DNA from: a virus
DNA length: 32,789 nt
Reading direction: 5' to 3' (one strand)
IMG/VR virus record: IMGVR_UViG_3300011445_000053
Span: 1 to 32,789 of that record
The notes beneath the pieces are model-generated. The model saw nothing but the letters and a program-made list of their open reading frames with translations. It ran no database searches and had not been told where the DNA came from. Below are positions 21,439-27,969 of this stretch, piece by piece. The stretch's first letter is position 1. The number at the start of each line of letters is the position of its first letter. Both the position numbers and the translations under genes were made by a program.

Positions 21439-23265
21439 ATGAAATATTTAATTCTCCTGTTGTTTCCCCTGTCACTGCTGGCGCAGGACTCGCTACACAT
21501 AGAAGAACTCGGTGTGTACGTGAAAACAACCGAAACGCCTCCACCCATCCCCGTGGATTCCTTCCTTACTATTGATAATGCCGTGAAAGGCATTCAGGGA
21601 TACCAGCATAATTATACGGGTAGCTGGACCGAAGGAACCAGTGCCAATTGGTATGCCAGTACATTAACCTACACAGCGAATGGAACTGTAACCTTCCGCT
21701 TCAATGGAACCAAAATTGAATGGTACACGGAGAAAGGGCCGACTCATGGTAAGGTAGGAGTAACGGTCGATACTTCACCAGAAGTTATCATCGACCTGTA
21801 TGCTCCTGCATTTGCTCAGAAGGTAAAAGTGTTTGAGCGTATCACCACGCAGGATATTCATACGATCAAGCTACGCTCAACTGGTACAAAGAATCCTGCA
21901 TCCAGCAACACGTATTTGCTAACGGACTTCTTCAAGATCAAAGATCCTGGGTTTGTACCTGATACTGTACCGCCTATTCCTCCACCAGTAACTGGTGATA
22001 TCATCGTATCACCCGGGCAATCCATCAAAGCCGCAGTAGAATCAGCGGCATCGGGTAAGGTCGTAAGTCTATTGGAGGGTACTTACAACGAGAACCTAAT
22101 CAATGTGCCGGTAGGAGTATCCGTGGTTGGGGCTGGTAAGCTGAAGACTATTATCAACTTCACCGGAAGCATGCCACAGCAATCCGAGGCAGCGATGTTC
22201 CAACTTAAAGGCGGATCTCTGGTCCGTATTATGCCGATGACTATGGGTATCACTGGCATCATGCTACTGGTTCTCTTGTGGTTAATAGCTAACTACGGAC
22301 CGTGGGCAGCACGAATTAAAATAATAGTTACATCAGTCATCGTCGTTATCATTATTGCAATCATCATCTACATTGTTAATGCTCCCAGGGCTTCTCAACA
22401 GGCAGCGGGTAACCAAACCATATCCGGGTTTACGATAAATGGAAAGTTTCAATGCAACGGTGGCATTATGGTAGACGGTAGGGATGCGGTCAAGATATTG
22501 GATGTCAAAGTACAGGAAACAACCTACTTCGGAGCATGGTTAAAGAACACAACGGGTAGTGAGTTTGCTAATAACGAACTAATAAATGGTAGTTGGGCTT
22601 CTGTTGGATGGGTAACCGGCGAACTTTGTGTGCATAATATTACTAACACTATCATCCATCATAACTTCTTTAAGACTACACGCAATGATAAAGGATACGG
22701 TATCAAAGCACTGTGGCCTGATGGAACTGTAACTAATTCAAAGTTCTATAATAACAAGTTTGAATTGACACACTTCTCTCTATGGAACAATGGGTCAGCG
22801 CCGAACATTGATATTGAACTGCATAATACGTTCTACAATGGCATTGAGATCTATGAGAATGACTTCTCCACGATGGGGTTATCATTAGCCTCTCACAGAC
22901 CGACTAAAGGAGGTAGGACCATCGTACGCAACAATCGTTTCGTATGGTGTTCAACCGCTCACATCGAACTGGTATGCTCCAACATAACCATTGGTCCGGG
23001 TAACGTGTTCAACGGAGCGCCGATGCTGACGGCGAATTTCCAGCCCAATGGAAAGTGGACGGATATCATCGTAACCGGTAATACCTTCACCAGTAACGGG
23101 GCGAATCCATCCTGGGGAGGAACGCATTTGATAGGTGCTAACGGAATGGACATGACCATTACCAACAACACCTACAATCATTTAGGTGGCTATACCTTTG
23201 TAAAGCACATGGGGGCGCCTGCGAACAGTACAATAGTGGATACAGGCAACACCAAGAACCAATGA
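21439..23265 (+). CDS. Secreted right-handed beta-helix protein with an internal two-helix membrane insert, 608 aa
   Basis: Residues 1-16 are a signal peptide (MKYLILLLFPLSLLAQ). Residues about 45-170 form a beta-sandwich-like module (TFRFNGTKIEWYTEKG). A proline-rich linker leads to a parallel beta-helix from about 185 to the end (VSPGQSIKAAVESAASGKVV onward, then NNKF and NNRF type turns). Between residues 265 and about 318 lie two strongly hydrophobic helices (about 269-285 and 295-313) separated by YGPWAARIK. They interrupt the helix where the chain otherwise runs on from KGGSLVR to NQTISGFTING. The insert begins with an ATG at 22231. Function: probably carbohydrate binding or lysis of surface glycans. 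Confidence 0.65.
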   Translation: MKYLILLLFPLSLLAQDSLHIEELGVYVKTTETPPPIPVDSFLTIDNAVKGIQGYQHNYTGSWTEGTSANWYASTLTYTANGTVTFRFNGTKIEWYTEKGPTHGKVGVTVDTSPEVIIDLYAPAFAQKVKVFERITTQDIHTIKLRSTGTKNPASSNTYLLTDFFKIKDPGFVPDTVPPIPPPVTGDIIVSPGQSIKAAVESAASGKVVSLLEGTYNENLINVPVGVSVVGAGKLKTIINFTGSMPQQSEAAMFQLKGGSLVRIMPMTMGITGIMLLVLLWLIANYGPWAARIKIIVTSVIVVIIIAIIIYIVNAPRASQQAAGNQTISGFTINGKFQCNGGIMVDGRDAVKILDVKVQETTYFGAWLKNTTGSEFANNELINGSWASVGWVTGELCVHNITNTIIHHNFFKTTRNDKGYGIKALWPDGTVTNSKFYNNKFELTHFSLWNNGSAPNIDIELHNTFYNGIEIYENDFSTMGLSLASHRPTKGGRTIVRNNRFVWCSTAHIELVCSNITIGPGNVFNGAPMLTANFQPNGKWTDIIVTGNTFTSNGANPSWGGTHLIGANGMDMTITNNTYNHLGGYTFVKHMGAPANSTIVDTGNTKNQ

Positions 23266-26035: not shown

Positions 26036-27445
26036 TTAAAGCAGAACAACAGAATTGATTTCATTAATGAGCGCTTTCTTATCCTGTTCCATCAACTTCA
26101 TTATGTCAAACACTTTTTCGCTGAAGCCAGCAAGCGCATAGACATTGTGTTGTGGGAACTGCATGGATCCGTATCCTTGCAAGTCAAACGAATATACAAA
26201 AGGATCAGCCTTCAACTTTTGTTTGTATTGATTAAAAGTTGACACTGGTGAGTTACCACCCATCCACCCTTGCATATCAGACAGGATTATAATCCGATCA
26301 TACGCTTTGTTAGCGGTCTGAAAGATTGCATGGAAGTTAGTTCCACCTGAAGAAAACTTCACCGAGTTTGCGATAGTGATCACTGAATCAGAGGAGTTAA
26401 CGTTCACGTATTTAGCGTTCTCTTGAAACAGAATCAAATCGCAATCATTGGACTTCACCAGCACCGCTGCAAAGAGCGACCCTATCTGCGCTGGCTTGCC
26501 ATTCATCGAGCCGGACACATCCAGCACCACCAGGGTCCGTCCATCGAATTTAGGCACATTCGCACAGGCGATATCCACGGCTTGATTTAGGGCCTTTACA
26601 GTAGCTCTCACCTCTTGTGAGGAATCCAGCTTGTTAATTTCCTCAAACGCAGTGGTGAAACGGAAAGGCAGTACCAGTGACTTCCTGATCAGCTTCTCAT
26701 CAACGAGCATCTCCAATGCTTGATCCAGCACCTCTGGAGCCTGTTCAATGATGTTCCGCAGGTTCCGTAACAGGGCGAAGTAGCCGATCTTCCTGGTGAG
26801 GATAAGCTCCTTCCACGCATCCGACTTTGCCTCCGCTGCATCCTCAGCCTTGCCAGCCTCGGATAGCTTGGCCTCCCAGGTATCTTCAGACTTCAGCGTA
26901 CCCGCTATTAGGGAGGCTAGCGCCTTCGCGTTCTTATCGACTGGCGTTGGGTGCAGGATGTTCGCTGCGTCCACCAGTGAGAATCCCTTGCCCTCTCCAC
27001 GGTACTTGGCCAGCTGGTAGCCATCGAACTTGTCGAAAGCTTTAGCCAGACCAGCCTTCATCGCGTGAGTCATCTTGCCCTTGGCATAGGACAGGATCTC
27101 GGTGATATCGTCAGGCCGGTACACCACGGAGTTATAGAAGCCTTTAGCACATGGATTACCCTTGAGGAACCCCCCTAATTTCACTGCCGCTACGTGTGAT
27201 ATGGATCGCATACCAAACTTGGTACGTCCATACACAATGGCCTTGGCCGCAAATTCAGGATTGATCTTAGGCAAGAGAGACTCTAATCTATCGAAGCCAG
27301 TTTCTTCCTTCTGGTAGAACTGATTTTGCGCGAATGAAGTAAGCAGGATGGAAACGAATTCCAATTCTGGTGTCTGGGAGAAGGCCTCGCCTCCGGCCAG
27401 GTTGGTCACCTTGGTAGGTGATTCTTTAACATTGAACTTTGCCAT
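26036..27445 (-). CDS. rsr: Ro60/Rsr ortholog: TROVE plus vWA domain RNA-binding protein, 469 aa
   Basis: Ro60 proteins are ring-shaped RNA chaperones that bind Y RNAs and misfolded RNA; in bacteria a Y RNA can tether them to PNPase. The TROVE part (about 1-300) carries the typical EFAAKAIVYGRTKFGMRSIS (67-86), ANILHPTP (161-168) and WKELILTRKIGYFALLRNLR (211-230) segments. The vWA domain (about 303-469) has an intact metal site: D309-x-S311-x-S313, T369 and D390. It is complete and slightly shorter than cellular orthologs. Upstream on the same strand lie a terminator-like hairpin and three Y-like RNAs. The start ATG follows the U run by about 11 bases, suggesting control by read-through or by Ro60 binding. 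Confidence 0.93.
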   Translation of the reverse strand: MAKFNVKESPTKVTNLAGGEAFSQTPELEFVSILLTSFAQNQFYQKEETGFDRLESLLPKINPEFAAKAIVYGRTKFGMRSISHVAAVKLGGFLKGNPCAKGFYNSVVYRPDDITEILSYAKGKMTHAMKAGLAKAFDKFDGYQLAKYRGEGKGFSLVDAANILHPTPVDKNAKALASLIAGTLKSEDTWEAKLSEAGKAEDAAEAKSDAWKELILTRKIGYFALLRNLRNIIEQAPEVLDQALEMLVDEKLIRKSLVLPFRFTTAFEEINKLDSSQEVRATVKALNQAVDIACANVPKFDGRTLVVLDVSGSMNGKPAQIGSLFAAVLVKSNDCDLILFQENAKYVNVNSSDSVITIANSVKFSSGGTNFHAIFQTANKAYDRIIILSDMQGWMGGNSPVSTFNQYKQKLKADPFVYSFDLQGYGSMQFPQHNVYALAGFSEKVFDIMKLMEQDKKALINEINSVVLL

Positions 27446-27456
27446 ATAATTAAAAT

Positions 27457-27489
27457 AAAAAGGTCACTAATCATCCTCTGATAGTGACC
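27457..27489 (-). terminator. Terminator-like hairpin between the Y RNA array and Ro60
   Basis: On the - strand, GGUCACUA (27489-27482) pairs perfectly with UAGUGACC (27469-27462) across a 12-base loop, followed by UUUUU (27461-27457). The Ro60 start codon lies 11 bases beyond. It would release Y RNA transcripts and limit Ro60 expression to read-through. Its 5' arm, GUCACUAUC at 27488-27480, is also the exact complement of GAUAGUGAC at the start of the second Y-like unit, so alternative pairing that frees the downstream gene is possible. Confidence 0.75.
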
Positions 27490-27500
27490 CTTCAATAACA

Positions 27501-27625
27501 TGACAGGAAATACCTCAATCGGAAATTTAGCGCTCTACCATTGAGCTACTGGGTTTCCCCAGATTGGATTCGAACCAATAACCACTCGATCCACAGTCGA
27601 AGTAACCGATTAATCGTCACTGTCA
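27501..27625 (-). ncRNA. YrlA-class Y RNA with permuted tRNA-like module
   Basis: Closing stem UGACAG (27625-27620) with CUGUCA (27506-27501); conserved UGACGA at 27619-27614; second stem UUAAUCGG (27613-27606) with CCGAUUGA (27522-27515); conserved UACUUCGA at 27604-27597 and AUUUC at 27511-27507. At the tip is a tRNA mimic in permuted order: T arm AUUGG-UUCGAAU-CCAAU (27579-27563), an acceptor-like stem CUGGG-GAAA-CCCAG (27562-27549) with a tetraloop in place of free ends, the linker UA, then D arm GCUC-AAUGGUA-GAGC (27546-27532). The stems at the base stand where a tRNA anticodon arm would be. This is the architecture reported for bacterial YrlA RNAs, which bind Ro60 through that helix. 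Ends are estimated from pairing. Confidence 0.82.
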
Positions 27626-27631
27626 AGATCA

Positions 27632-27699
27632 TTGATAGGAGAAATCGCTGCTGGGAGTGTTTCATTGCTCGAAGTATCCCAATGGCTCGTCACTATCAA
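27632..27699 (-). ncRNA. Minimal Y-like RNA unit 2 (no tRNA module)
   Basis: Closing stem UUGAUAG (27699-27693) with CUAUCAA (27638-27632), 7 perfect pairs. Conserved UGACGA at 27692-27687, inner stem UUGGGA (27682-27677) with UCCCAG (27656-27651), conserved UACUUCGA at 27676-27669 and AUUUC at 27645-27641. The order and spacing match the other two units. Both stems differ from unit 1 by paired changes, evidence that the RNA is structured and selected. It lacks the T and D arms and so resembles only the Ro60-binding helix of the third unit. Confidence 0.68.
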
Positions 27700-27706
27700 A
27701 TATGTA

Positions 27707-27775
27707 TAAGAGGAAATAATGTAGCTGGGTGTTTTCTGTAAGCTTTCGAAGTAACCCAACTGCTCGTCACTCTTA
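27707..27775 (-). ncRNA. Minimal Y-like RNA unit 1, overlapping the RHH stop codon
   Basis: Closing stem UAAGAG (27775-27770) with CUCUUA (27712-27707); conserved UGACGA at 27769-27764; inner stem AGUUGGGU (27761-27754) with ACCCAGCU (27730-27723), 8 pairs; conserved UACUUCGA at 27753-27746; AUUUC at 27717-27713. The UAA that opens the closing stem is also the stop codon of the RHH gene, so the array is probably cut from, or co-transcribed with, that mRNA. It could also act as a 3' UTR element that binds Ro60. Transcription start not identified. Confidence 0.65.
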
Positions 27776-27907
27776 ATGTTTTTTTTCAATAAATTCTTGT
27801 ACGATCCGTCTGATCATACTGGACACTGTCCTCTCCCCGTAATCGGGGGCCATCTTCTTTAATTTTTTGACCCATTCGTGGTCTATCCAGAAGTTGAATC
27901 TCGTCAT
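27773..27907 (-). CDS. Ribbon-helix-helix DNA-binding protein, 44 aa
   Basis: A short protein of the Arc/CopG type: beta strand near residues 2-7 (TRFNFW), helix A about 10-20 (EWVKKLKKMAP), turn DYGERT, helix B about 27-42 (VSSMIRRIVQEFIEKK). RHH dimers insert the paired strands in the DNA major groove and usually repress nearby promoters. It is the first gene of the Y RNA-Ro60 transcription unit and its stop codon forms part of the first RNA unit. It may regulate the divergent promoters in 27908-27969. Start ATG at 27907; no clear Shine-Dalgarno sequence. Confidence 0.75.
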   Translation of the reverse strand: MTRFNFWIDHEWVKKLKKMAPDYGERTVSSMIRRIVQEFIEKKH

Positions 27908-27969
27908 GGCGGTAGCAAGGTACAAAGGTGCGTATTAAATACATACAATTTTATTAACTATATTTACAT

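What the first reader, a model, noticed from the sequence alone, without database searches (positions are those of the whole stretch)
27532..27579. Permuted tRNA mimic: T arm, GAAA-capped acceptor-like stem, D arm
On the - strand a T arm with loop UUCGAAU precedes, rather than follows, the D arm with AAUGGUA loop. Between them the 5-bp acceptor-like stem is closed by a GAAA tetraloop, and the invariant-type UA linker lies before the D stem. This cannot be charged like a tRNA but could be recognised by RNase P, tRNA modification enzymes or tRNA-cleaving defence nucleases. It may therefore serve as a decoy in phage-host conflict.
Basis: partly seen in the sequence, partly recalled or inferred. 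Interest (0 to 1): 0.8.

Follow-up and report, generated by a model that had tools for sequence, protein, structure and literature searches.

The report
Phage Y RNA carrying permuted tRNA
The tRNA look-alike is part of a Y RNA, a small partner RNA of the phage's own Ro60-type protein encoded just downstream; such RNAs are known, but this one and many phage relatives keep a whole circularly permuted tRNA, anticodon arm included.

Summary
It is not a stand-alone decoy but the module of a YrlA-like Y RNA (27625-27501; RF02553 44.3 bits, E 1.3e-8, below the curated cut-off of 69), the last of three tandem Y RNAs directly upstream of an Rsr/Ro60 gene (27445-26036). A model built from 25 relatives without the window finds it at 66.9 bits, and the four arms covary. 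The same Ro-binding frame (two stems and UACUUC) occurs 175 times in 73 related loci against none on the reverse strand, nearly always upstream of rsr. Phage Y RNAs and YrlA tRNA mimicry are known; descriptions I could read give YrlA only D, T and acceptor arms, so this is a new variant of a known kind. A tether or gate for Rsr is the likeliest function; the anticodon-nuclease decoy is untested.

The parts
27501..27625 (-). Y RNA 1: outer stem TGACAG/CTGTCA, inner stem TTAATCGG/CCGATTGA, UUACUUC motif, permuted tRNA-like module
27585..27601 (-). anticodon arm TTCGA-CTGTGGA-TCGAG, anticodon GUG
27563..27579 (-). T arm, loop UUCGAAU
27549..27562 (-). acceptor-like stem of 5 bp closed by a GAAA tetraloop
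27532..27548 (-). UA linker and D arm (GCUC-AAUGGUA-GAGC)
27632..27699 (-). Y RNA 2: short stem-loop with the same Ro frame, no tRNA module
27707..27775 (-). Y RNA 3: short stem-loop with the same Ro frame, no tRNA module
27455..27492 (-). terminator-like hairpin with U run between the Y RNA array and rsr
   Evidence: z -4.9; sequence
26036..27445 (-). Rsr/Ro60 homologue, 469 aa, TROVE and vWA_Ro60 domains

Best explanation
The element is the tRNA-like module of a phage Y RNA that works with the phage's own Ro60-type protein (Rsr). Shown here by sequence: three tandem Y RNAs share one frame upstream of rsr, and the rsr-proximal one carries a complete tRNA body opened between positions 26 and 27, its acceptor end closed by a GAAA tetraloop. 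Inferred from studied relatives: Rsr binds the two-stem frame, and the tRNA-like part projects from the ring and either tethers a partner (PNPase in the bacterial RYPER particle, or another nuclease or modification enzyme) or gates what Rsr can bind, so that the phage can remodel or degrade structured RNA during infection. Modification of the D and T loops by host enzymes probably stabilises the fold. Identity as a Y RNA is near certain (about 0.97); the tether or gate mechanism is the best supported by family knowledge (about 0.5).
For: YrlA model match; Rsr gene directly downstream on the same strand; three repeats of the frame GTGACGA-stem-[U/A]UACUUCG; the same frame in 73 loci, 175 at score 30 or more against 0 on the reverse strand, 147 of 165 within 1.3 kb upstream of rsr; a 59%-identical Rsr in phage LR745206 also follows two Y frames and a terminator-like hairpin; four-arm covariation in 25 relatives, 96.5% of cells paired against 72% shuffled and at most 51% slid; the window is found by a model it did not contribute to. 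Literature: Rsr binds the basal stem, the tRNA-like domain contacts PNPase, DusA and TruB modify YrlA (PMC8394870).
Against: The RF02553 score is below the curated cut-off (44.3 against 69). The minimum-energy fold of this RNA alone does not form the T arm (z -1.65), so the tRNA fold rests on covariation. No transcript, Rsr binding or partner is shown. The frame scanner was designed on four of the loci it was later applied to. Model R1 also matches junctions of tandem tRNA genes, up to 50.5 bits, although this window has no tRNA genes.
Confidence: 0.85

Rival explanations
1. Anti-defence decoy: the Y RNA presents a whole, uncharged tRNA with an intact anticodon loop so that host anticodon nucleases or other tRNA-targeting effectors bind or cut it instead of real tRNAs; Rsr only stabilises it.
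For: Intact anticodon arm with U33 and mostly purine 37 in 28 viral modules with varied anticodons; acceptor sealed, so it cannot serve translation; competitive inhibition of an anticodon nuclease was proposed for YrlA (PMC7790460).
Against: Salmonella YrlA is not cleaved by the SOS-induced nuclease (PMC7790460). About half of the viral modules and most Y RNAs lack the arm; Rsr-linked chromosomal loci have it too (8 of 23); anticodons are too varied for one nuclease.
Confidence: 0.2
2. A genuine permuted tRNA gene: the transcript is cut open at the acceptor cap and joined at 26/27 to give a functional tRNA-His.
For: Un-permuted, the sequence is called a tRNA-His(gtg) by ARAGORN (halves chosen by me and ACCA added).
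Against: Acceptor stem of 5 bp closed by GAAA, no CCA; relatives have 4-10 bp sealed mostly by tight GNRA or UUCG-type caps; D and anticodon halves are separated by the Ro frame, which is conserved with Y RNAs that hold no tRNA.
Confidence: 0.02
3. Chance or decayed junction of two tandem tRNA genes (3' half of one, 5' half of the next).
For: Such junctions do match the YrlA and R1 models weakly.
Against: The two acceptor strands pair with each other and covary in all 7 pairs, 39 of 49 with 5 bp or more against 4.1% in swapped halves; no tRNA genes in the window; Ro frame and rsr next to it.
Confidence: 0.01

Closest known systems
YrlA (Rfam RF02553), bacterial Y RNA; Salmonella structure PDB 6CU1
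   Same: T arm, capped acceptor-like stem and D arm in permuted order; stem formed by the RNA's ends; linked to rsr; U[A/G]CUU after the basal stem
   Different: The Rfam structure has a connecting helix in place of the anticodon arm and PMC8394870 describes only D, T and acceptor arms; here the anticodon arm is kept and the tRNA is opened at 26/27. Score is below the gathering cut-off.
Short Y RNAs of Ro60/Rsr particles (Deinococcus Y RNA, Salmonella YrlB)
   Same: basal stem for Rsr, small loop, encoded beside rsr (like Y RNAs 2 and 3)
   Different: no sequence comparison with these RNAs was made here; Y2 and Y3 are shorter stem-loops with their own frame sequence
Phage Rsr homologues with likely Y RNAs (mycobacteriophages; Listeria phage CKA15, PMC12282133; jumbo phages, PMC7824862)
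   Same: phage-encoded Ro-type protein with neighbouring small RNAs
   Different: Y RNAs of CKA15 are conjectural there; the protein of related phage P100 matches DUF2828/DUF7788 and its upstream repeats do not fit the frame described here
Permuted tRNA genes of archaea and red algae
   Same: 3' half precedes 5' half
   Different: those are processed into chargeable tRNAs (my own knowledge); here the acceptor is sealed by a tetraloop

Membership tests
YrlA / bacterial Y RNA | tRNA-like domain with T arm, capped acceptor-like stem and D arm in this order | tested here: met
YrlA / bacterial Y RNA | basal stem formed by the two ends of the RNA, for Rsr | tested here: met
   two stems of 6 and 8 pairs, frame shared by Y2, Y3 and other loci; binding itself not testable
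YrlA / bacterial Y RNA | encoded beside an rsr (Ro60) gene | tested here: met
YrlA / bacterial Y RNA | score at or above the Rfam gathering score (69 bits) | tested here: not met
   44.3 bits; Xanthomonas phage copies score 55.9 and 46.7. Hence filed as a variant, not as a strict RF02553 member.
YrlA / bacterial Y RNA | binds Rsr; carries dihydrouridine and pseudouridine | not testable with these tools
   needs experiment; reported for Salmonella YrlA (PMC8394870)
tRNA | order D-anticodon-T with an open 7-bp acceptor and a CCA end | tested here: not met
Rsr / Ro60 | TROVE domain plus vWA domain with MIDAS residues | tested here: met
   both above their Pfam cut-offs; D309, S311, S313
tandem tRNA-gene junction | neighbouring complete tRNA genes and unpaired acceptor strands | tested here: not met

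The most novel reading that the evidence does not exclude
Phage Rsr particles display whole, uncharged, circularly permuted tRNAs with varied anticodons, used to bind, block or recruit enzymes that act on anticodon arms (host anticodon nucleases or anticodon-loop modification enzymes), a function that arm-less YrlA cannot have.
Probability: 0.25. Interest if true: 0.8.

Novelty: new variant of a known kind. Interest (0 to 1): 0.5.

Why it matters
Y RNAs are thought to steer Ro60-type rings through a replaceable effector module. That phages of several host phyla keep arrays of Y RNAs, many displaying a complete permuted tRNA with an intact and varied anticodon loop, makes a question directly testable (what reads the anticodon arm?) and gives natural variants to test it with. 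It also warns annotators: some GenBank 'tRNA' genes next to phage rsr are Y RNA modules.

Tried and rejected
Rfam at gathering threshold: nothing. A mixed nine-protein alignment could not seed a contig search. Tandem tRNA remnant and functional permuted tRNA: rejected on the capped, covarying acceptor and the surrounding frame. RtcB link (RNA repair operon): only 2 of 24 records, so not a general partner. Listeria P100 as a source of expression evidence: its Ro-like protein is a different Pfam family and its upstream repeats do not match this frame, so the CKA15 transcript data were not used as support. My first D-arm search pattern was faulty and was replaced. The portal protein gave no phage relative, so the host stays unknown. 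Chen et al. 2014 (RNA 20:1715) and Wang et al. 2018, the key papers on bacterial Y RNAs, are not in the held library; what I recall of the first (likely Y RNAs in more than 250 bacteria and phages) is from memory. No structure prediction of Rsr was run, as sequence evidence for it is already strong.

Full report
Observation. The - strand carries, at 27579-27532, ATTGG-TTCGAAT-CCAAT, CTGGG-GAAA-CCCAG, TA, GCTC-AATGGTA-GAGC, exactly as described. ARAGORN sees no tRNA gene in the window, and Rfam at curated thresholds sees nothing. With permissive thresholds the YrlA model (RF02553) matches 27603-27509 (-) at 44.3 bits, E 1.3e-8 in 601 nt, and E 1.7e-10 in the search of the whole record with this one family, below its gathering score of 69. 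Weak YrlA matches also occur in ordinary genomes (7 of 14 controls), so the score alone would not settle the matter.

Surroundings. The next gene on the same strand (27445-26036) is a Ro60/Rsr homologue with TROVE and Ro60-type vWA domains, aligned by profile to Ro60 (1yvp) and Deinococcus Rsr (2nvo), with the MIDAS residues D309, S311 and S313 conserved. Upstream lie two more stem-loops built like the first: outer stem, GTGACGA, inner stem, [U/A]UACUUCG, loop, inner stem, pyrimidine-rich linker, outer stem (27699-27632 and 27775-27707). A terminator-like hairpin (27492-27455, z -4.9) separates the array from rsr. A 50-aa ORF ends in the first stem of Y RNA 3 (27925-27773).

Relatives. The closest Rsr outside the same virus (59% identical; phage LR745206, 635 kb) also has two such frames and a terminator-like hairpin upstream. 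A Xanthomonas phage has five, three with permuted tRNA modules, and a crAss-like phage has three. A scanner for the frame, made from these, found 175 instances at score 30 or more in 73 loci and none on the reverse strand of the same 568 kb; 147 of 165 lie within 1.3 kb upstream of rsr. Bacillus phage G, Arthrobacter, Streptomyces and Caulobacter phages, and bacterial chromosomes (Acidobacteria, Asticcacaulis, Thiofilum and others) share it. The scanner was designed on four of the loci, so the reverse-strand control, not the raw count, carries the argument.

The module. Of 175 unique Y RNAs (score 26 or more), 49 have a T arm before a D arm, two have the straight order, 17 a T arm only and 107 no T arm. 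In the 49, the acceptor strands pair with each other over at least 5 bp in 39, against 4.1% when halves are swapped between RNAs. An anticodon arm was tested at the exact distance that a tRNA demands from the T loop: 22 of 49 have 5/5 pairs in that register and 0 to 2 at registers shifted by 1 to 6 bases; 33 have at least 4. After removing chance cases, 28 have a full arm with U33, with more than ten different anticodons. In the window this arm is TTCGA-CTGTGGA-TCGAG (27601-27585), anticodon GUG; its 5' strand overlaps the conserved UACUUC. Joining the halves at 26/27 and adding ACCA, ARAGORN of 28 a tRNA, the window's twin L001 as tRNA-His(gtg); since I chose the halves, this illustrates rather than tests.

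Covariation. In 25 modules without the window or its twin (alignment A3) the four-arm structure has 96.5% of cells paired (72.4% shuffled, at most 51% slid), 126 cells changed on both sides (39 shuffled), and compensatory changes in 7 of 7 acceptor pairs and 3 of 5 anticodon-arm pairs. The sequences had been selected for T, D and anticodon-arm pairing, which favours those helices; they were not selected for the acceptor. A model from this alignment finds 27601-27531 (-) at 66.9 bits, E about 6e-15; the next place in the window scores 9. The same model matches tandem tRNA junctions at up to 50.5 bits, so tRNA-rich regions must be excluded when it is used; the window has no tRNA genes. The energy-only fold of this single RNA forms both outer stems, the capped stem and the D arm but not the T arm.

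Mechanism. In studied bacteria the basal stem of the Y RNA binds Rsr, the tRNA-like domain is reported to contact PNPase, and DusA and TruB modify it (PMC8394870; PMC7790460; PMC4726728). The window has the same anatomy, so a tether or gate role in a phage Rsr particle is the best inference; no step of it has been shown for this phage. What reads the anticodon arm is open. The decoy idea gains a plausible structural basis from the arm but has no direct support, and the variety of anticodons and its presence in chromosomal loci (8 of 23) argue against a single nuclease as target.

Comparison. Phage and bacterial Y RNAs with tRNA-like domains are known (Chen et al. 2014, recalled but not read; cited for mycobacteriophages in PMC12282133). 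The Rfam structure and PMC8394870 give YrlA only D, T and acceptor arms. Keeping the anticodon arm, and opening the tRNA at 26/27 rather than through the anticodon stem, is the difference. I could not check whether the 2014 and 2018 papers mention such forms, so novelty is stated as a variant of a known kind.

Noticed in passing
L006:1640-1915, L086 near 2311, L116 near 2083: The same Ro frame holds tRNA-like modules in the ordinary order (D, anticodon, T); in phage csAssE-Sib (OR575929) two of them are annotated as tRNA-Tyr and tRNA-Lys.
   Followed up: partly
L009:1801-1868 (OQ622092 20624-20691): The annotated tRNA-Thr of Xanthomonas phage 10KY502B overlaps the anticodon/T part of a Y RNA's permuted module and is probably a misannotation.
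   Followed up: partly
L127, - strand, upstream of 23091 (Listeria phage P100 gp165): A DUF2828/DUF7788 protein is preceded by three stem-loops sharing ACAGCAA[A/T]TACTA; they may correspond to the very abundant non-coding RNAs reported for related phage CKA15 (PMC12282133).
   Followed up: partly
L004:2127-2411: A Y frame whose insert of about 240 nt is not tRNA-like; its nature is unknown.
   Followed up: no
L010 (Bacillus phage G), 1200-1880: Five Y frames in a row upstream of gp540, none with an obvious tRNA module.
   Followed up: no
window 27773-27925 (-): A 50-aa ORF (ending ...TVSSMIRRIVQEFIEKKH), resembling a small DNA-binding protein by eye, whose stop codon lies in the first stem of Y RNA 3.
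   Followed up: no
window 21439-23265 (+): A beta-helix-like protein interrupted by an odd hydrophobic stretch (..MGITGIMLLVLLWLIANYG..), possibly a frameshift or insertion.
   Followed up: no
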